Shown here in pieces: positions 12,934 to 22,312 of a DNA stretch of 32,646 bases. The stretch spans positions 1 through 32,646 of the forward strand of contig DATJYL010000201.1 in the NCBI GenBank assembly GCA_035499655.1. Reading direction: 5' to 3'. The DNA comes from Pirellulales bacterium (lineage in GTDB: Bacteria; Planctomycetota; Planctomycetia; Pirellulales; JADZDJ01). Made by a program: the position numbers and the translations under genes. Positions within the stretch are counted from its first letter, which is position 1. Each line of letters starts with the position of its first letter. Below the pieces are notes generated by a model, which did no database searches, had not been told where the DNA came from, and was given only the letters and a program-made list of their open reading frames with translations.

Positions 12934-13965
12934 CTATTTCCCTCCGAAGCGAGCACGCAGCGCCAAATTAGTTTCTAGGACGTTCACCAAGGGGACTCCA
13001 ACGGTTCCGCCTAAAGGAGCCGTGGCGCTGTCACGCAATTGCTTTTCGATTTCCTTGTGTACGACGGCTTCGTCGGTGCTTGTTTTCTTGGCCCAGGCGG
13101 CCGCGACGCGATCTAATTGCCACAGCGCGTTATCCAAAGTGATGTCGGGATCGAGACCGGAGCCAGAGGCCATCACCATATCGGCCGGCACAGTTTGCAA
13201 TTCAGCATCGGGATGTTCACTCAGCCACATATCAAAGAAGTTCGATTGGATATCGGCTCCATCGGACACCGGCTCCACGCTGGTCGTTGACTTGCCGTCG
13301 GGGCCCGGTTTCGTGACAACCGACAGGAATTTGCCGGGGTTCACCTTGGAGAAATTCTCAAAGAAAACCACGGCCAAGTCTGCGGGTGCCGGTGAGTCAT
13401 TATCCGGATTATCCGCCTTGAATTTAGCGACGATATCCGGATGCGACTTTTCCCAATCGAGCACGTATTGCTGCTGCGGCGTCGGGTTTTTGTCATCGTA
13501 CGTCGTGCCGACCCAGTTTTGTGCGACGGTATTGTGGGCATCGGCCCATTGCGCAACGACCCCCGGCTTGCCGCCGAACTGATCCTTTTGGAACCACGCT
13601 TCGATATCAGGTGCGACAGGTTGTCCTTTCTTCTCTCCGCTGTTGTATTTCACAATTGGGCCCAGCGCTTTCGCTACTCGGTCGCGCAAGAGGTAGTTGT
13701 TACCACCCCAGTTCGAAGCGCCGGATGCCGCGCCGTTATACGAGGCCGCCGACGGGCGCGGTTGGAAGTATTCGTCGGAAGTGAACGGTTGAGCGATCAG
13801 CCGCGAGCCAATTACTTTGTCACTGGCATCGACAACTAAGCTGCCCTGCGCTTTATCGTGGAACAGCGTTTGGCCGATGATCAGCAAGACCAACGGATAA
13901 AGAATGCAGCATAAGACAATGGTCAGAAACAACAGCCACAAGTTGGCACGAATATGAGCGGACAT
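12934..13965 (-). CDS. kdpC: KdpC, potassium-transporting ATPase subunit C, with insertion
   Basis: KdpC assists KdpB in the high-affinity K+ uptake complex. The N-terminal membrane helix (WLLFLTIVLCCILYPLVLLIIG, residues ~10-31) is followed by IGSRLIAQPF, YFQPRPSAASY and SGASNWGGNN. The C-terminal signature MASGSGLDPDIT (265-276) and GVPLVNVLETNLAL are typical. At 343 aa it is far longer than usual KdpC (about 190 aa). The excess is one block, residues ~105-258, between the two conserved halves, rich in Asp, Pro and Trp. Reading frame and codon pattern continue through it. It is the last gene of the operon, about 70 bp after kdpB. Confidence 0.93.
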   Translation of the reverse strand: MSAHIRANLWLLFLTIVLCCILYPLVLLIIGQTLFHDKAQGSLVVDASDKVIGSRLIAQPFTSDEYFQPRPSAASYNGAASGASNWGGNNYLLRDRVAKALGPIVKYNSGEKKGQPVAPDIEAWFQKDQFGGKPGVVAQWADAHNTVAQNWVGTTYDDKNPTPQQQYVLDWEKSHPDIVAKFKADNPDNDSPAPADLAVVFFENFSKVNPGKFLSVVTKPGPDGKSTTSVEPVSDGADIQSNFFDMWLSEHPDAELQTVPADMVMASGSGLDPDITLDNALWQLDRVAAAWAKKTSTDEAVVHKEIEKQLRDSATAPLGGTVGVPLVNVLETNLALRARFGGK

Positions 13966-14034: not shown

Positions 14035-16233
14035 TTACACCATATGAAGAGCCGTCAGTACAAGGTCGATCAGCTTGATGCCAATAAAGGGCGCGATTAC
14101 GCCTCCCAGGCCCCAAATCAACAGGTTGCGACGCAGCAGGGCATCTGCTCCCACGGGACGATATTTAACTCCCTTTAATGCAATCGGAATGAGAAGCGGA
14201 ATGACAATCGCGTTAAAAATCACGGCTGACAAAATCGCTGACGTGGCCGAGTGTAAATTCATGATGTCGAACGGCTTGAGCCACGGCAACGTGGCCGCAA
14301 ACAACGCCGGGATAATAGCGAAATACTTCGCCAGGTCATTAGCGATGGAAAACGTCGTCAACGCTCCGCGGGTCATCAACAACTGCTTGCCGATTTCGAC
14401 GGTTTCGATCAGCTTCGTGGGATCGCTGTCTAAGTCCACCATGTTTCCTGCTTCCTTGGCGGCCTGCGTGCCGGAATTCATCGCAATGCCCACGTCGGCT
14501 TGCGCCAGCGCTGGGGCGTCGTTGGTGCCATCACCCATCATGGCGACGAGCTTGCCACCCGCCTGCTCTTTGCGAATGTATTCGAGCTTTGCCTCGGGCG
14601 TAGCTTCGGCCACGAAATCGTCCACTCCGGCCTGGGCGGCAATTGCCGCTGCGGTTAGCGGATTGTCGCCGGTGACCATGACGGTTCTGAGTCCCATGCG
14701 CCGCAAGCGTTCGAACCTTTCGGAAATGCCTGGCTTTAAAATGTCTTCCAATACCACCATTCCGGCGATGCGGTTTCCGTCGCAGACCAACAGGGGCGTA
14801 GCCCCTTTGCTTGCCACTTCCGCGACCATGACATCCGTATTGGTCGGTGCGGAACTGTTTTGTTTCTTGACGTGCCGCAGAATGGCATCGGGCGCGCCCT
14901 TACGAATTTGTCGACCATCGGGCAGATCGATACCGCTCATTCGTGTCTGGGCGCTAAACGCTATGAATTGCACTCCGGGGGGAGCTGAGCCGTTGCCCAC
15001 CGGCGACTGTTCCAATTGATGAAACAGTTCTACGATGCTCTTTCCTTCTGGAGTCTCGTCCGCCGCCGAAGCCTGCGCCGCCAGGCTTCCCAACTCGGTG
15101 GCACTAAAGCCGTCGAACGGAACAAATCGCGTCGCTCTCCGGTTGCCGATGGTAATCGTACCTGTTTTGTCCAGCAATAACGTATCGACATCGCCCGCCA
15201 CTTCCACCGCCTTGCCGCTTTTGGCCAGAATGTTTGCTCGCAAGGCTCGGTCCATCCCGGCAATGCCGATGGCCGCCAACAACGCGCCGATTGTCGTGGG
15301 AATTAAACACACCAATAGCGCGACGAGTGTCGGCACGTCAGTCCCAAGGCTTTTCAACGGATGATCAATGCCCAGAAAGTCCTTCATGTAAAGCTCGGCG
15401 TTGAGCGCCATGGGCCAAAGGGCTGCGGTAACAATTAAAAAAATCAAAGTGAACGCCGCCAATACCAGCGAAAGTGCAATTTCGTTGGGTGTGCGCTGGC
15501 GGATTGCGCCTTCGACAAGGGCAATCATGCGATCCAAAAACGATTTGCCAGCGCCAGCCGTGATTTGTACGACGATGCGGTCCGACAAAACCCGCGTGCC
15601 GCCGGTGACTCCCGAGCGATCGCCCCCGGCCTCGCGGATGACCGGCGCTGATTCGCCGGTAATGGCCGATTCATCGACTGAAGCCACACCTTCGATAATT
15701 TCTCCATCGCCGGGAATAATGTGACCGGCTTCGATGACCACTCGATCTCCGGCTTGCAACGCCGTAGAGACGGTTTCCTCGACGGCGCCATTTGCTTTCA
15801 GGCGGAAAGCGGGCGTGGCTTGCCGCGTTTTTCGCAGGGCATCGGCCTGAGCTTTGCCACGAGCTTCGGCCAAGGCGGAAGCAAAATTAGCGAATATGAC
15901 GGTCAAAAATAGCCAAATATCTAGGGCGATGAGATACCCTACGCCCGCTTGGCTGCTATAACCCAGCAGAGCTCGGATGGTGAAGATCATGCACAATACC
16001 GTGCCCACTTCGACCACGAACATTACCGGATTTTTCCACTGGATGTCGGGCCGCAACATCACGAACGATTGCTTCAAGGCCGCCTTGGTCAGCTCCGGCG
16101 CGAACAAACCTGCTCTCCGGCTTTGCCGACGGGCAAGTTTGTTTTGTTCTGGTGAATTCTCGTTTGTAGCAGGCGTCTGCTGCGAATATCTGGCCGTGCT
16201 CGAAAGCTGTTCAAGCGTTGAGAGCTGATCCAT
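14035..16233 (-). CDS. kdpB: KdpB, potassium-transporting P-type ATPase catalytic subunit
   Basis: This is a P-type ATPase of the Kdp class, 732 aa from ATG 16233, chosen because GGAG lies at the right distance and the open frame upstream of it looks non-coding. It has the actuator motif TGES (near residue 192), the phosphorylation site DKTGTIT (Asp355), the KGAP-type nucleotide-binding segment and the hinge [21 protein letters not shown]. Membrane helices flank these domains. It hydrolyses ATP to drive K+ uptake through KdpA. It lies between kdpA (about 70 bp upstream) and kdpC. A long plus-strand ORF opposite it is only its shadow. Confidence 0.97.
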
Positions 16234-16304
16234 TGTGAATGCACTCCAAAATCTATTGATAAATACGCCTATGGCAGGGTGAAGAATTCCACACACGCGC
16301 GGCC

Positions 16305-18128
16305 TTAGCCGCCAAAGGGTAATGGGCCGAAATGTTCTGCAACGGGGCCGAGCACCGCGGCGGGCAAAAACAACAAAGCACCCACAAGAAGGATTGTGCC
16401 TAACAGCACAAATCCGAACGTAACGGTGTCAGTTCGCAATGTGCCCACGGTGAACGGAGTCGCTTTTTTAACCGACAGACTGCCGGCGATTGCAATGGGC
16501 GCAATGATCGGAATAAAGCGCCCCAGTAACATGACTAAACCGCACGCTATATCCCACGCCCGTTGCGGGGCTTTTGCGGGAGCATCGTCGGCGGCAAAGC
16601 CCACGGTATCCCCCAGGCCTTCGAAGCCGGAGCCGTTATTAGCTGATGCCGAAGTGAATTCGTAGACAATTTCTGAAAAACCGTGAGCGGCTGGATTGTT
16701 TTTGGTGCCAAAACCCCAGTCCGTTGCGACAAACAACCCGGCGGGGATCAGGATCAAAAGCGGGTGAGCAAGCATGGCGAACGACGCCAATTTCATTTCC
16801 TTGGCTTCCACCTTTTTGCCTAAATACTCCGGCGTGCGCCCAACCATTAGGCCGGCGATGAAGACGCCAATAATGAGATAAATCAGCAGGTTAATCAGCC
16901 CCACGCCAACGCCCCCCCAAATGCAATTCAGCCACATGCCCGTTAGCGGCGTGATTCCCGCCAACGGATTCAGGCTATCATGCATACAATTCACCGAACC
17001 GTTGGAAGTGTTCGTTGTCAGCGCGGCCCAGGTCGCACCGGCCGCGGTGCCGAAGCGCAGTTCTTTACCCTCTAGATTTCCGAGCGATTGATCAACGGGC
17101 AAACCTGCCACGGCCGATACGTCGATTTCGCGCAAGCCGCCTTCGACGGTGGAATCGGTCGCGTGATATGTTTGCGCTGGATGGGCTGTTAAGGCGGGAT
17201 TCGGACGCTCGGCATCCCAATACAGACTCCAGCCGAGTGTAATCAACGAAAGCACCAGCATCACTCCGAAGATGACCGCGGCGTGTGGATAATTTTTGAG
17301 CATTTTGCCGAACATCACCAATTGCGCCACGGGAATCAAAATGATTCCCATGCAAGTTAGTAAATTCGTCCAGCTATTGGGGTTTTCAAACGGATGGGCA
17401 CTATTGGCGCCGAAGTAACCACCGCCGTTGGTGCCAAATTGTTTCACGGCAACGATGGCTGCTACCGGACCGCGGGCAATTAGTTGGGGGTTGGCATTGC
17501 CGGCATCGTTGGTACCCATCGCTCCTGTTTCAACCGTAGCCGCTTGAGCTGCACCATCCAGGGTCATTGGCGAACCGCCCCAAAGCAGAAGCACGCCAAC
17601 GATGAGATTCAGTGGAATGTAAAAGTAGGCGACGCCTCGCCACATATCTAAATAGAAATTTCCCATGGTCTTGTCGCCGCGCAAGCCACGAATAATGGCC
17701 ACTAAAGCAGCCAAGCCAATTACCGGCGAAAGAATTTGCTTCCAGCAGACGAAAAAGATTTGGGTGAAATATGAGAAGTGCACTTCGCCTGAATAGTGCT
17801 GCTGATTCGTGTTCGTCATGAATGAGATGGCCGTGTGAAAGATTGTGCTCGGCGACAGCATTCCTTTTCCGTCGGGATTCAGAAACGATGGATGGTACGG
17901 CTGCGTGGCCAGTACGGCAAAACCCACGACGAATGTCACGACATTGAATAACATAAACGCCCAGCAGTACTGCTTCCAATATTGTGGCCCCGTGTCCACA
18001 CGGCTTTCGATCCAGCGCAGAAATCCGGGGATGCGACAACGGCCCTCAAACACGTAGGCCATGTACAGGCCCAGCGGAATGGCGAGGACGAATGTGATAG
18101 CGAAAACAAATACCGGCAAAGTCCACAT
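16305..18128 (-). CDS. kdpA: KdpA, potassium-transporting ATPase K+-binding subunit
   Basis: This 607 aa polytopic membrane protein has the repeated pore and selectivity regions of Kdp[50 protein letters not shown] and [16 protein letters not shown], plus the conserved [17 protein letters not shown] loop. It starts [13 protein letters not shown], with GAGGAAA upstream of ATG 18128. It is somewhat longer than E. coli KdpA (557 aa), mainly in a soluble loop around residues 310-370. It selects and channels K+ in the KdpFABC complex. It is preceded by kdpF at 19 bp. Confidence 0.97.
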
Positions 18129-18147
18129 GGAATGAACCTTTTCCTCT

Positions 18148-18228
18148 TTAGAACCATTCAGGGCGCAAAAGCGCCGTGAACAGATAGATAAACAACAACA
18201 CTGTCACGATGGCGGCAAATACGATCAT
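18148..18228 (-). CDS. kdpF: KdpF, small stabilising subunit of the Kdp complex
   Basis: This 26 aa peptide is one membrane helix (IVFAAIVTVLLFIYLFTALL) ending RPEWF, the arrangement typical of KdpF, which stabilises the KdpABC complex in the membrane. AGAGGA seven bases upstream supports ATG 18228. It sits 19 bp before kdpA and 11 bp after the stop of the 31 aa peptide gene. It is too short for standard gene calls and easy to miss. Confidence 0.85.
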   Translation of the reverse strand: MIVFAAIVTVLLFIYLFTALLRPEWF

Positions 18229-18239
18229 GATTTAGTCCT

Positions 18240-18335
18240 CTAGACTTTGTCGCAGCCTTTAATCAGGGCGAACATCAATCCCAGGCCAATGAGACCCAGT
18301 AAAAATAAACCAGGTATCCAGATTGTTAGATTCAT
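18240..18335 (-). CDS. 31 aa membrane peptide gene at the head of kdpFABC
   Basis: An open frame from ATG 18335 to TAG encodes 31 aa: a short N-terminus (MNLTIWIPG), one hydrophobic helix (LFLLGLIGLGLMFALI) and a charged, Cys-containing tail (KGCDKV). It ends 11 bp before kdpF, whose ribosome binding site overlaps its stop region. Position, size and tail suggest a second small subunit or assembly peptide of the Kdp complex. I recall similar unnamed peptides with a C-D/E-K/R-V ending in kdp operons of other bacteria, but cannot check this. Its own ribosome binding site is weak. Confidence 0.6.
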   Translation of the reverse strand: MNLTIWIPGLFLLGLIGLGLMFALIKGCDKV

Positions 18336-18416
18336 GTCGAATGCTCTATTAAATTCGTACAGAATGGCTGCACAACAGAACCAGCGATAGAGGGCTGCAC
18401 ATGCTGGAACTGGGGA

Positions 18417-18773
18417 TCAAGCGCCGATTTGTGCCTGTTCGACTGCAACTATTGAGTTGGTTCTAAATCCTGAAGCGCCGTTTACCTGCGCCGCCGGATA
18501 ATTTTGGTTTGTGGAACCGATCAAAGACTTTTCTAGTTTGGTCGCCCGCTTCGGTGCATGCCCGAGGCTACGGACAGGCATCTCGAGCATCTGATGAAAT
18601 CCTGCCAAAACCGCTAAGACTGCGCAACCCAACGGAAGCACTGCCAAGAGCAGCCCGACCACGGAACCTTTGGGTACAAAAAGGTCAAACAAAATCCCAA
18701 TCGCTGTGAGCGCAACCGAAGCCACGAAAACCGCGCCCATGCCGATCAGCCTTGTTTTTTGATGCACTGTCAT
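18417..18773 (-). CDS. Small membrane protein, first gene of the kdp transcript
   Basis: This 118 aa protein has two hydrophobic segments (MGAVFVASVALTAIGILFDL and VVGLLLAVLPLGCAVLAVLAG) with a short loop between, and a soluble C-terminal half of mixed polarity (APKRATKLEKSLIGSTNQ). ATG 18773 has GGAG eight bases upstream and is preferred to the more upstream start at 18797. No family is recognised. It lies on the same strand as kdp, 81 bp before the 31 aa gene and about 90 bases downstream of the predicted sigma-54 promoter start, so it would lead the kdp operon. A role in K+ transport or sensing is only inferred from position. Confidence 0.6.
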   Translation of the reverse strand: MTVHQKTRLIGMGAVFVASVALTAIGILFDLFVPKGSVVGLLLAVLPLGCAVLAVLAGFHQMLEMPVRSLGHAPKRATKLEKSLIGSTNQNYPAAQVNGASGFRTNSIVAVEQAQIGA

Positions 18774-18871
18774 AATGCACACTCCATTCGCAACCATTGC
18801 TGAGCCGTGGGGGCAATTCTGGTTGTGACAATCTGTCAGGCGTTCTTACGGCATCTTTTCTGCACGCTTCC

Positions 18872-18891
18872 TATTGCATCCTTCGTGCCGG
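18872..18891 (-). promoter_or_regulatory. Sigma-54 (-24/-12) promoter directed at orf118-kdp
   Basis: The minus strand reads CCGGCACGAAGGATGCAATA. This carries the GG (18889-18888) and GC (18877-18876) dinucleotides with the required 10 bases between them, and the flanking matches GGCACG and TGCAA to the consensus TGGCACG-N4-TTGCA. Two bases differ: T to C before GG, and T to A before TGC. Transcription would begin near 18864, upstream of orf118. The neighbouring regulator is of the sigma-54-activating type. Confidence 0.65.
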
Positions 18892-18915
18892 CATCACAAG
18901 GCGCCATGTAAGTCG

Positions 18916-18921
18916 TATAAT
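18916..18921 (+). promoter_or_regulatory. Possible -10 element for the regulator operon
   Basis: A perfect TATAAT lies about 115 bp before the response regulator start, with only a weak -35 (TCACAA, 16 bp spacing). If used, transcription would begin near 18928 and the direct repeats at 18967-19007 would lie in the leader, allowing autoregulation. Confidence 0.3.
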
Positions 18922-18966
18922 TGCCTATGGATACGAGAAACGACCCTCTTTGAGAACTCGTTGGTT

Positions 18967-19007
18967 ATTGCAAATTGCACGATTAACGCATTGCAAATTG
19001 CACGATT
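18967..19007. repeat. Tandem 18 bp repeats, probable activator binding sites
   Basis: ATTGCAAATTGCACGATT occurs twice without mismatch, at 18967-18984 and 18990-19007, a 23 bp period (about two helical turns). Each copy contains the dyad TGCAA-A-TTGCA. They lie 78-118 bp upstream of the -24 element and just before the NtrC-type regulator gene, the usual place of enhancer sites for such activators. Confidence 0.65.
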
Positions 19008-19035
19008 TTAGAACTCGGCGTTAGGCTTTAATTTG

Positions 19036-20367
19036 ATGAATGTCTTGGTTGTCGATGACGACTCGGGCCTGCGACGTACCATGCGCCTCTCGCTGGAATT
19101 GCTGGGGCACACTGCCGTGGAGGCACGAGATAGTTCACAGGCCATTCAATGTTTAGAGCGTCGGCCATTTGATGTGGCTTTTCTCGATTTGCGCCTTGCG
19201 CAAGAGCAAGGCTTAGATTTGCTGCCGCAAATGTTGCGGCTCGCGCCCGGCTTGCAGGTCATCGTAGTCACCGCTTTTGCGACGATTGAAACCGCCGTCG
19301 AAGCCATGCGTCGTGGGGCTTTCGACTATCTTCCCAAGCCATTCACGCCAGACCAACTTCGCGTTCTACTAGATCGCATTGCAAAAATGCGCAAACTTCA
19401 ATTCCAAGTCGAGGAGCTCGAGGAGCAGGTTCGCTCTGTCGAGCCCGAAGTTGATCTGCAAACCGAAGAACCACAAATGCGGCAAGCATTAGATGTGGCT
19501 TTCAAGACAGCACCGACCGAGGCCACCATTCTATTGCGGGGAGAAAGCGGCACCGGAAAAGGCGTGTTGGCGCGTGCCATTCATGCCCGCAGTACCCGTT
19601 CTGCAGCGCCGTTCGTTACGATTCACTGCCCCAGTTTGTCTTCAGAACTACTGGAAAGCGAATTGTTTGGGCATGTTCAAGGCGCGTTTACTGGAGCAGT
19701 TCGAGATACAACCGGCAAAGTCGCCGCAGCGGAAGGTGGAACTTTGTTCCTCGACGAGGTCGGCGATTTGCCGCTTCCTTTACAACCCAAGTTGCTGCGG
19801 CTACTACAGGAAAGGGTGTACGAGCGAGTTGGCGAAACGCAAACGCGAACCAGCAATGTGCGCGTGATTGCAGCCACAAATCGCCACCTGGAAGCCGAAA
19901 TCACCGCTGGACGATTTCGCGAGGACCTCTTTTACCGTTTGAATGTGGTTGAAGTCACAATGCTCTCGCTCCGGCAACGACTAAAAGATATTTTGCCGTT
20001 GGCGGAGCATTTGCTGCGGTTTTTCGTCCGTCAGAATGCAAAAGCTATCGCGGGATTTGCGCAGGAAGTGCGAGATGCAATGGTACGTTATCCTTGGCCA
20101 GGAAATATCCGCGAACTCCGCAACGCCATTGAGCGTGGGGTCATTCTGTCTCCGGGCCCGTGGATCGAACTGAGTCATTTGCCTAGCCAAATTGGCAATC
20201 CTACTGCACTAGATTCTGCGGCGCTGGATTCCAATTCGCTGGACCAGATCGAAGCGGAGCATATCCGTCATGTTCTTGCTTCCAGCGAAACCATTGAAGC
20301 AGCGGCGGAAAAGTTAGGCATCAATCCTAGCACTCTCTATCGAAAGCGCAAACGATACGGGATATGA
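19036..20367 (+). CDS. NtrC-family sigma-54-dependent response regulator
   Basis: This 443 aa protein has a receiver domain (VVDDDSG at the N-terminus, phospho-acceptor Asp51, Thr79, Lys101), a short linker helix, and a sigma-54 AAA+ domain with Walker A GESGTGKG, the sigma-54 contact loop GAFTGA and Walker B GGTLFLDEVGD. The C-terminus is a Fis-type HTH (EAAAEKLGINPSTLYRKRKRYG). ATG 19036 directly follows an in-frame TTG and is chosen as the normal start. The kinase gene follows after 79 bp. Position opposite kdp, the repeats just upstream and the -24/-12 site suggest that it activates kdp, where an OmpR-type KdpE would normally stand. Confidence 0.95.
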   Translation: MNVLVVDDDSGLRRTMRLSLELLGHTAVEARDSSQAIQCLERRPFDVAFLDLRLAQEQGLDLLPQMLRLAPGLQVIVVTAFATIETAVEAMRRGAFDYLPKPFTPDQLRVLLDRIAKMRKLQFQVEELEEQVRSVEPEVDLQTEEPQMRQALDVAFKTAPTEATILLRGESGTGKGVLARAIHARSTRSAAPFVTIHCPSLSSELLESELFGHVQGAFTGAVRDTTGKVAAAEGGTLFLDEVGDLPLPLQPKLLRLLQERVYERVGETQTRTSNVRVIAATNRHLEAEITAGRFREDLFYRLNVVEVTMLSLRQRLKDILPLAEHLLRFFVRQNAKAIAGFAQEVRDAMVRYPWPGNIRELRNAIERGVILSPGPWIELSHLPSQIGNPTALDSAALDSNSLDQIEAEHIRHVLASSETIEAAAEKLGINPSTLYRKRKRYGI

Positions 20368-20446: not shown

Positions 20447-22312
20447 GTGACTTTCCGGCAACGCATCATCGTGGCTTTGATTCCACTGCTGATTCTGCTT
20501 GCAGTCATCGGAGGAACGGCCACCATTTTGATCTACCGCATTGGCACACGCATCGAGGAAATCTTGCATGAGAATTATGACAGTGTCATTTACATGCGCA
20601 ACCTCAATGAAGCTTTGGAGCGCATCGACTCGTCATTTCAATTTGCCCTAGCCGGCCGCGAGGACGATGCGTTCAAGCAATACCAAGCCAATTTGACGCC
20701 TTACGATGCCAATTTGAAAGGGGAACAAGGCAATATCACTCTGCCAGGAGAAGCTGAATTAGTTGAGTCGCTCACGATGTTTAGCAAGCAATATCGAGAG
20801 CAGGGTGATGCTTTTTATAAGCAGGCCAAAGAGTCGCGAACATCGCTTTATTTTTCACCGGAAGGTCAACCTGGGCTGTATGATTCCTTTCGAAAAATCA
20901 AAGAAGTATCCAGCAAGATACTCAAGATGAATGAGGATAATATGCATGATGCGGACCAGCAAGCGCGCCGCATGGCGCACTTGTCGCTGTGGTGGTATGG
21001 AGTTGGCCTTGTTCTGGGGGTTGCCCTGGCCGCAGTCTTGCTAGGCAGTACGATTCGCACAATTCTTTATCCCATCCGAGCACTCACCGATTCCGCCACA
21101 GCCATCGGTCACGGCGATTTGGATCAACTGGTATCGGTATCGTCCGACGATGAAATTGGGGCGCTAGCAAGCGCATTCAACACGATGGCCCGCCAACTTC
21201 GCGATCTACTCCAATCGCAACGAGGTCAATTAGTTCTCGCACAGCAAACCGGACAAGCGACGATAAATTCTTTCCCTGACCCAGTATTGGTGATTAACCG
21301 GCAACATGAGGTTGAAATGGCCAATCCAGTGGCTCGGCGTTTGTTGGGCGTTGTGCCGGTGTCAGAGACCGGAAGCGCTTCCACAAAATGGGAACCGCCG
21401 GCCGCCTTGCGACAGCCTTTGGCCGACAGCTTTCGCGAGCAGGGAGAGTATTTGCCGCAAGATTTCGATAAAGCTATCAATTTGCGAACGGGAGACGAAT
21501 CGCGTTCGTTCTTGCCGCGAATTGCACCGATTCGTGATGCACATGGAATGACTCGCGGCGTGGCAGTTTTGCTGCAGGATATTACCCGCTTTCGTCTGTT
21601 GGACGAAGTGAAAAGTAATCTTGTGGCCACGGTCAGTCATGAATTGAAAACTCCTCTGACCAGCATTCGGCTTGCTTTGCACTTGCTGTTGGAAGATACG
21701 ACCGGACCGCTTTTGCCAAAGCAGCTCGAATTGCTGATCGATGCCCGCGATAATGCCGAGCGAATTTTGGTAATGATCAATAACCTGCTCGATCTGGCTC
21801 GTTTGGAACAAGCGCCGGGGCAATTGCATTTCCAGCCGTCGCGGCCGGGGGCACTGATGCGATCCATGGCTGAATCGTTCCGACCACGAGCGGCGGAGCA
21901 AGGCGTCGAGCTCTCTCTGGAAGCGCCTGCTGATCTGCCACAGGTTGCGGTTGATGTGGACCAACTTCAGCATGCGCTGCAAAATTTGTTAGATAATGCG
22001 CTGGCATATACGCCCCTGGGAGGGCGAATCAAGCTGGCCGCCAAACAAGTTGACGGGAAGATTGCTTTCTCCGTGACCGACACAGGCCGCGGGATTCCGT
22101 CCGAATACATTCAATCAGTGTTTGAAAAATATTTCCGTATTCCGGGGAGTTCCGTTCCCGGTGGCAGCGGCCTGGGGCTGGCTATAGTCCGAGAAATTGC
22201 TACGGCGCACGGTGGTTCTGTGGAGTGCGAAAGCGAGCCCGGTAAAAAAACAGTCTTTCGCATGTTCCTGCCGATCTTGCAAACCACAGATTCGGCCGGT
22301 GCCCGGGCCTAA
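20447..22312 (+). CDS. Membrane sensor histidine kinase
   Basis: At 621 aa, this protein has a transmembrane helix (residues ~7-30), a periplasmic four-helix-like sensor of about 145 residues, a second helix (~177-203), HAMP, a PAS-like domain (DPVLVINRQHEVEMANPVARRLLG), a dimerisation domain with the phospho-acceptor His in VSHELKTPLTSIR, and an ATPase domain (NLLDNALAYTP, DTGRGIP, GSGLGLAIV). The start is GTG 20447. It is the probable partner of the upstream regulator. It lacks the four-helix core and N-terminal KdpD region of classical KdpD, which are partly supplied by the next gene, 26 bp downstream. Confidence 0.92.
   Translation: MTFRQRIIVALIPLLILLAVIGGTATILIYRIGTRIEEILHENYDSVIYMRNLNEALERIDSSFQFALAGREDDAFKQYQANLTPYDANLKGEQGNITLPGEAELVESLTMFSKQYREQGDAFYKQAKESRTSLYFSPEGQPGLYDSFRKIKEVSSKILKMNEDNMHDADQQARRMAHLSLWWYGVGLVLGVALAAVLLGSTIRTILYPIRALTDSATAIGHGDLDQLVSVSSDDEIGALASAFNTMARQLRDLLQSQRGQLVLAQQTGQATINSFPDPVLVINRQHEVEMANPVARRLLGVVPVSETGSASTKWEPPAALRQPLADSFREQGEYLPQDFDKAINLRTGDESRSFLPRIAPIRDAHGMTRGVAVLLQDITRFRLLDEVKSNLVATVSHELKTPLTSIRLALHLLLEDTTGPLLPKQLELLIDARDNAERILVMINNLLDLARLEQAPGQLHFQPSRPGALMRSMAESFRPRAAEQGVELSLEAPADLPQVAVDVDQLQHALQNLLDNALAYTPLGGRIKLAAKQVDGKIAFSVTDTGRGIPSEYIQSVFEKYFRIPGSSVPGGSGLGLAIVREIATAHGGSVECESEPGKKTVFRMFLPILQTTDSAGARA

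What the first reader, a model, noticed from the sequence alone, without database searches (positions are those of the whole stretch)
18872..19035. Candidate sigma-54 promoter and enhancer repeats controlling the kdp operon
Seen: a -24/-12 match with exact GG-N10-GC spacing pointing at orf118-kdpFABC; two perfect 18 bp repeats with an internal TGCAA-A-TTGCA dyad 78-118 bp upstream of it; and a divergent regulator with an intact GAFTGA loop. Known: Kdp is normally controlled by KdpD/KdpE with an OmpR-type regulator and sigma-70. Inferred: here K+ uptake is switched by an NtrC-type activator through sigma-54.
Basis: partly seen in the sequence, partly recalled or inferred. Interest (0 to 1): 0.82.

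Follow-up and report, generated by a model that had tools for sequence, protein, structure and literature searches.

The report
Sigma-54 switch for bacterial potassium uptake
In this apparent planctomycete bacterium, the genes of the high-affinity potassium pump Kdp appear to be switched on by a sigma-54 promoter with two upstream activator sites bound by a neighbouring NtrC-type regulator, a less usual design than the textbook KdpD/KdpE control, already reported in Desulfovibrio but apparently not in this phylum.

Summary
A -24/-12 site (CGGCACGAAGGATGCA, 18890-18875, minus strand) points at orf118-kdpFABC. Two perfect 18-bp repeats (18967-18984, 18990-19007) lie upstream. The divergent regulator has receiver, GAFTGA-bearing AAA+ and Fis-type HTH domains, and the genome has rpoN.

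Alone, the promoter match is modest (p about 0.016). Comparison makes the case. Six other kdp promoters in the order, including a second kdp operon in this genome, share the architecture: a kdp-directed -24/-12 site with TTGCA-N3-TGCAA palindromes about 84-92 and 111-123 bp upstream (combined p about 5e-14, window excluded; spacing ranges chosen after inspection). Twelve canonical kdp loci of the same order lack it (p = 0.90). A locus with a 71%-identical KdpA but no orthologous regulator lacks clear activator sites.

The general idea is not new. In Desulfovibrio vulgaris, NtrC-type DVU3334 targets kdpFABC with a split KdpD (Rajeev 2011; Kazakov 2015). Desulfovibrionales loci found here have the same module, regulators in the same clade, strong -24/-12 sites and paired TTACA-N3-TGTAA palindromes. 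This is a new, well-supported member in another phylum, with a shifted half-site. No transcription start or binding has been measured.

The parts
18875..18890 (-). -24/-12 (sigma-54) promoter CGGCACGAAGGATGCA, directed at orf118-kdpFABC
   Evidence: conserved in L112, L114, L115, L117, L118, L119
18967..18984 (.). activator site 1 (18-bp repeat holding the dyad TTGCA-AAT-TGCAC), proximal, about 90 bp upstream of the -24 element
18990..19007 (.). activator site 2 (identical repeat), distal, about 113 bp upstream
18893..18921 (+). sigma-70-like promoter (ATCACA-17-TATAAT) toward the regulator gene; the activator sites fall in the predicted leader downstream of it (possible autorepression; inference)
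   Evidence: consensus match only; 1 found, 0.7 expected
19039..20367 (+). NtrC-type response regulator, predicted activator: receiver (Asp50), AAA+ with GAFTGA at 19681-19698, Fis-type HTH
   Evidence: clade with Desulfovibrionales kdp-linked regulators
20447..22312 (+). histidine kinase, HAMP-PAS-HisKA-HATPase; predicted partner of the regulator
   Evidence: co-linear in L112, L114, L115
22324..23508 (+). KdpD sensor domain plus Usp domain without kinase domains (split KdpD)
   Evidence: best NCBIfam model NF038185 KdpD_non_kinase, 365 bits, below its cut-off of 550
18417..18773 (-). orf118, first gene of the kdp operon, no known family; counterparts of 142-151 aa at the same place in L112 and L119
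18240..18335 (-). 31-aa single-helix peptide upstream of kdpF, conserved in the long-KdpA loci
   Evidence: no family
18148..18228 (-). kdpF (26 aa)
16305..18128 (-). kdpA (607 aa)
14035..16296 (-). kdpB
12934..13965 (-). kdpC (343 aa, with a large insertion in the middle)
   Evidence: two stretches matched

Best explanation
The kdp operon (orf118, a 31-aa membrane peptide, kdpF, kdpA, kdpB, kdpC) is transcribed by sigma-54 RNA polymerase from the -24/-12 site at 18890-18875. Two dimers of the divergent NtrC-type regulator bind the tandem palindromes TTGCA-N3-TGC(A/C) about 90 and 113 bp upstream, assemble into the AAA+ hexamer and melt the promoter through GAFTGA. Phosphorylation comes from the HAMP-PAS histidine kinase encoded next; the K+ signal is gathered by the kinase-less KdpD-Usp protein encoded third, as in the split KdpD of Desulfovibrio. 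The same regulator probably controls the second kdp operon of the genome (contig 23) and may repress its own gene, because its sites lie between a sigma-70-like promoter and the start codon. Shown by sequence: site architecture, its conservation and its link to this regulator clade. Inferred: binding, phosphorylation path, response to low K+, autorepression.
For: Joint architecture (kdp-strand -24/-12, proximal and distal palindromes) in the window and L112, L114, L115, L117, L118, L119: each p of 0.001 or less by dinucleotide shuffles, combined 5e-14 without the window; 12 canonical kdp loci of the same order combined p = 0.90 (independent scoring). L119 is the second kdp operon of this genome and has no regulator on its contig piece; the genome's next best regulator hit is only 40% identical. 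L116 has a 71%-identical KdpA but no orthologous regulator, and lacks convincing palindromes (p = 0.55; 0.014 in the joint test). The regulator falls in a 100/99-supported clade with kdp-linked regulators of Desulfovibrionales, whose promoters carry -24/-12 sites scoring 0.95-1.0 and paired TTACA-N3-TGTAA sites. D. vulgaris DVU3334 targets kdpFABC experimentally (PMC3333781, PMC4641369). rpoN is present with an RpoN box. No sigma-70-like site faces kdp and no riboswitch is found.
Against: No transcript or binding data. The spacing ranges of the joint test were set after seeing the loci. Some members of the same regulator clade occur in genomes, several incomplete, with no kdpA found (7 of 10 genomes), so the clade is not only a Kdp regulator. 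L167 has an adjacent regulator of this clade but no recognisable site. DVU3334 itself was not retrieved by name and its published motif was not seen; the match is through Desulfovibrionales loci with the same gene order. The genome is identified as Planctomycetota only by kinship in searches and tree.
Confidence: 0.87

Rival explanations
1. kdp is driven by a sigma-70 promoter and the -24/-12 match is chance or minor; the repeats serve another regulator.
For: One -24/-12 match alone is only p about 0.016 in this intergenic region; planctomycete sigma-70 promoters may escape a consensus scan.
Against: No sigma-70-like site faces kdp. The site and its spacing to the palindromes recur in six other promoters and not in 12 canonical controls.
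Confidence: 0.06
2. The promoter is sigma-54 dependent, but a different NtrC-type protein of this genome, or several of them, is the activator.
For: The genome holds at least 11 matches to NtrC-type proteins. In D. vulgaris two further response regulators target kdp (PMC3333781). L119 has sites without an adjacent regulator.
Against: The palindromes accompany this regulator clade across contigs and genomes, and differ in one base between the Planctomycetota and Desulfovibrionales regulators, whose recognition helices also differ (PSTLYRKRKRYG versus TVTLWRKRKELG).
Confidence: 0.06
3. The 18-bp repeats act only on the regulator's own gene (autoregulation) and do not take part in kdp activation.
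For: They lie between the sigma-70-like promoter (18893-18921) and the regulator's start codon.
Against: In L119 and L117 the same sites sit upstream of kdp with no divergent copy of the regulator next to them, and in L118 they sit upstream of a kdp operon.
Confidence: 0.04

Closest known systems
DVU3334-DVU3339 kdp module of Desulfovibrio vulgaris Hildenborough (Rajeev 2011, PMC3333781; Kazakov 2015, PMC4641369)
   Same: NtrC-type response regulator with GAFTGA; KdpD split into a sensor-plus-Usp protein and a separate histidine kinase; kdpFABC as target; counted among sigma-54-dependent operons. The Desulfovibrionales loci with this gene order found here have strong -24/-12 sites and paired N3-spaced palindromes.
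   Different: In the window the regulatory genes are divergent, not at the end of the kdp operon; half-site TTGCA rather than TTACA; activator sites about 90/113 bp upstream rather than 64-123; an extra orf118; long KdpA and KdpC; two kdp operons in one genome.
Canonical KdpD/KdpE control (E. coli type)
   Same: Same pump and the KdpD sensor domain with Usp.
   Different: No KdpE (OmpR-type) and no kinase domains on the KdpD protein; NtrC-type regulator and -24/-12 promoter instead. The canonical type exists in other genomes of the same order (L120, L122-L129, L131).
sigma-54 regulator beside kdp in Acidihalobacter aeolianus / Acidithiobacillus (PMC9062700)
   Same: A sigma-54 regulator gene next to kdp.
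   Different: There KdpD/KdpE is also present, and no promoter or binding site was described in the passages read.

Membership tests
sigma-54-dependent (-24/-12) promoter | GG-N10-GC with TGGCACG...TTGC-like context | tested here: met
   CGGCACGAAGGATGCA
sigma-54-dependent (-24/-12) promoter | rpoN in the genome | tested here: met
   PF00309 match E 2.5e-13; RpoN box in the ORF
sigma-54-dependent (-24/-12) promoter | transcription start about 12 bp downstream, RpoN dependent | not testable with these tools
   needs 5'-end mapping
NtrC-type activator | receiver with phosphorylatable Asp, AAA+ with GAFTGA, Fis-type HTH | tested here: met
DVU3334-type Kdp regulation module | split KdpD (sensor+Usp, no kinase) plus separate histidine kinase plus NtrC-type regulator next to kdp | tested here: met
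DVU3334-type Kdp regulation module | regulator in the same clade as the Desulfovibrionales kdp regulators | tested here: met
   clade support 100/99, (DVU3334 itself not identified by name)
DVU3334-type Kdp regulation module | same DNA motif | tested here: inconclusive
   same N3 palindrome and tandem layout, but TTGCA half-sites instead of TTACA; published motif not seen
Canonical KdpD/KdpE system | OmpR-type KdpE and kinase-bearing KdpD at the locus | tested here: not met
c-di-AMP or other K+ riboswitch control of kdp | Rfam match in the leader | tested here: not met
   no Rfam match up to E = 1 in 18100-19300

The most novel reading that the evidence does not exclude
A second lineage of Kdp control, split KdpD plus histidine kinase plus NtrC-type activator with sigma-54, shared between Planctomycetota and Desulfovibrionales. 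It has a conserved enhancer layout and a half-site that changed together with the recognition helix, and it coexists in one order with canonical KdpD/KdpE, so that kdp operons have switched between sigma-54 and (presumably) sigma-70 control during evolution.
Probability: 0.6. Interest if true: 0.55.

Novelty: new member of a known kind. Interest (0 to 1): 0.45.

Why it matters
Kdp is the textbook emergency K+ pump and KdpD/KdpE its textbook switch. A well-defined alternative using sigma-54 makes the promoter fully dependent on an activator, with no basal leak expected. It gives a clean case for asking how one operon changes its sigma factor in evolution, and how a KdpD without a kinase passes on the K+ signal. 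It also gives a predicted DNA motif that can be used to annotate K+ regulons in planctomycetes, where little regulation has been mapped.

Tried and rejected
Nearest regulators in the named genome collection: only one of 80 loci had a regulator of this kind next to kdp (L017, Bacteroidetes), and it branches apart and shows no clear site. Riboswitch in the leader: no Rfam match. Whether the 18-mer is a dispersed genome repeat: no, two exact copies only. Whether every member of the regulator clade serves Kdp: no, 7 of 10 checked genomes have no kdpA found. Flanks of non-kdp clade members (L169, L172, L173, L175) were listed but not pursued. Literature for prior work on planctomycete kdp and sigma-54: none found in the held library.

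Full report
OBSERVATION. The -24/-12 site, the two 18-bp repeats and their distances are as described. The intergenic region between the first kdp-operon gene (orf118, ATG at 18773) and the regulator (ATG at 19039) is 265 bp. The site CGGCACGAAGGATGCA lies on the minus strand at 18890-18875; its distance to the orf118 start is 101 bp. Taken alone, a site this good appears in 1.6% of shuffled versions of the region. The repeats ATTGCAAATTGCACGATT are exact copies 23 bp apart; no other exact copy exists in the 4.54-Mb genome and no other place has two TGCAN3TGCA sites 7-13 bp apart. The genome has rpoN with an intact RpoN box.

GENES. Divergent from kdp lie, in order, an NtrC-type response regulator (receiver, AAA+ with GAFTGA, Fis HTH), a HAMP-PAS-HisKA-HATPase histidine kinase, and a KdpD sensor domain plus Usp protein without kinase. 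NCBIfam's closest model for the last is 'KdpD-like non-kinase potassium sensor', below its cut-off. The kdp side reads orf118, a 31-aa membrane peptide, kdpF, kdpA (607 aa), kdpB, kdpC (343 aa).

CONSERVATION. Among relatives of the same order, three genomes carry the same divergent arrangement with regulators 65-67% identical (L112, L114, L115). A second kdp operon of the same long-KdpA type lies in the window's own genome (L119, contig 23) without a regulator on that contig piece, and genome G034 has two kdp operons on contigs L117 and L118, with a 50%-identical regulator on L118. All six upstream regions outside the window have a kdp-directed -24/-12 site with N3-spaced TTGCA/TGCAA palindromes: proximal at 84-92 and distal at 111-123 bp. 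A joint score (site plus two palindromes at these distances) gives p of 0.001 or less for each and 5e-14 combined without the window. Twelve canonical-type kdp loci of the same order give 0.90 combined. Separate scoring of site and palindromes gave the same picture. The distance ranges were chosen after the loci had been seen, so the p values are somewhat optimistic; the controls were treated in the same way apart from a fixed 500-bp upstream region. L116, whose KdpA is the closest of all (71%) but whose genome has no regulator ortholog (best E 2.9e-93) and has canonical KdpD/KdpE upstream, lacks convincing palindromes (p = 0.55; joint p = 0.014).

WIDER FAMILY. Elsewhere in the phylum the same module sits next to ordinary kdp operons (L165, L167, L176). 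L165 shows a good site and palindromes, L176 a weaker site with palindromes, L167 none. In Desulfovibrionales, eight loci have kdpABC, split KdpD, histidine kinase and NtrC-type regulator in a row (L206-L213). Of the seven whose promoter region is held, all have -24/-12 sites scoring 0.95-1.0 and paired TTACA-N3-TGTAA-like palindromes at 64-123 bp. A maximum-likelihood tree of 87 NtrC-type proteins puts these and the planctomycete kdp regulators in one clade (100/99), apart from the bulk of NtrC-type proteins; the Bacteroidetes case L017/L186 is separate. Recognition helices differ between the two groups (PSTLYRKRKRYG against TVTLWRKRKELG), in step with the half-site G or A. That link is a correlation over two groups, not a test.

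PRECEDENT. Rajeev et al. 2011 (PMC3333781) report that DVU3334 regulates kdpFABC in D. vulgaris and that KdpD is split into a K+ sensor plus UspA protein and a histidine kinase. Kazakov et al. 2015 (PMC4641369) list DVU3334 with GAFTGA and kdp as its sigma-54-dependent target. No paper on planctomycete kdp and sigma-54 was found in the library held.

MECHANISM. Best reading: low K+ is sensed through the kinase-less KdpD-Usp protein and the separate kinase; the phosphorylated regulator binds the two palindromes as two dimers, assembles its hexamer and activates sigma-54 polymerase at 18890-18875, turning on both kdp operons of the genome. The palindromes also lie downstream of the only sigma-70-like promoter found (18893-18921, toward the regulator), so autorepression is plausible. 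Binding, signal and start site are inferred.

LIMITS. No expression or binding data. DVU3334 was not retrieved by name and its published motif was not seen. The regulator clade also occurs in genomes, several of them incomplete, where no kdpA was found, so it has other roles or lost partners.

Noticed in passing
window 18240-18335 (-): A 31-aa single-helix peptide between orf118 and kdpF is conserved in the long-KdpA loci L112, L114, L115, L117 and L119, and a similar 26-aa peptide precedes kdpF in Desulfovibrionales L211 and L213; no family matches. Possible extra small subunit of the Kdp complex.
   Followed up: partly
window 16305-18128 and 12934-13965 (-): KdpA is 607 aa and KdpC 343 aa, with a large insertion in the middle of KdpC; this long type was found in only 7 of 397 genomes of the order, which suggests transfer or loss.
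   Followed up: partly
L119 (own genome, contig 23): A second long-type kdp operon, KdpA 57% identical to the first, with its own orf118 homolog and the same promoter layout.
   Followed up: yes
L173 5661-9882, L180 5335-9556: Split KdpD, histidine kinase and NtrC-type regulator in a row in two 9-10 Mb genomes where no kdpA was found; what they control is unknown.
   Followed up: partly
L116: A kdp operon with canonical KdpD/KdpE upstream and a split KdpD plus histidine kinase downstream, without a regulator ortholog: a possible intermediate between the two kinds of control.
   Followed up: partly
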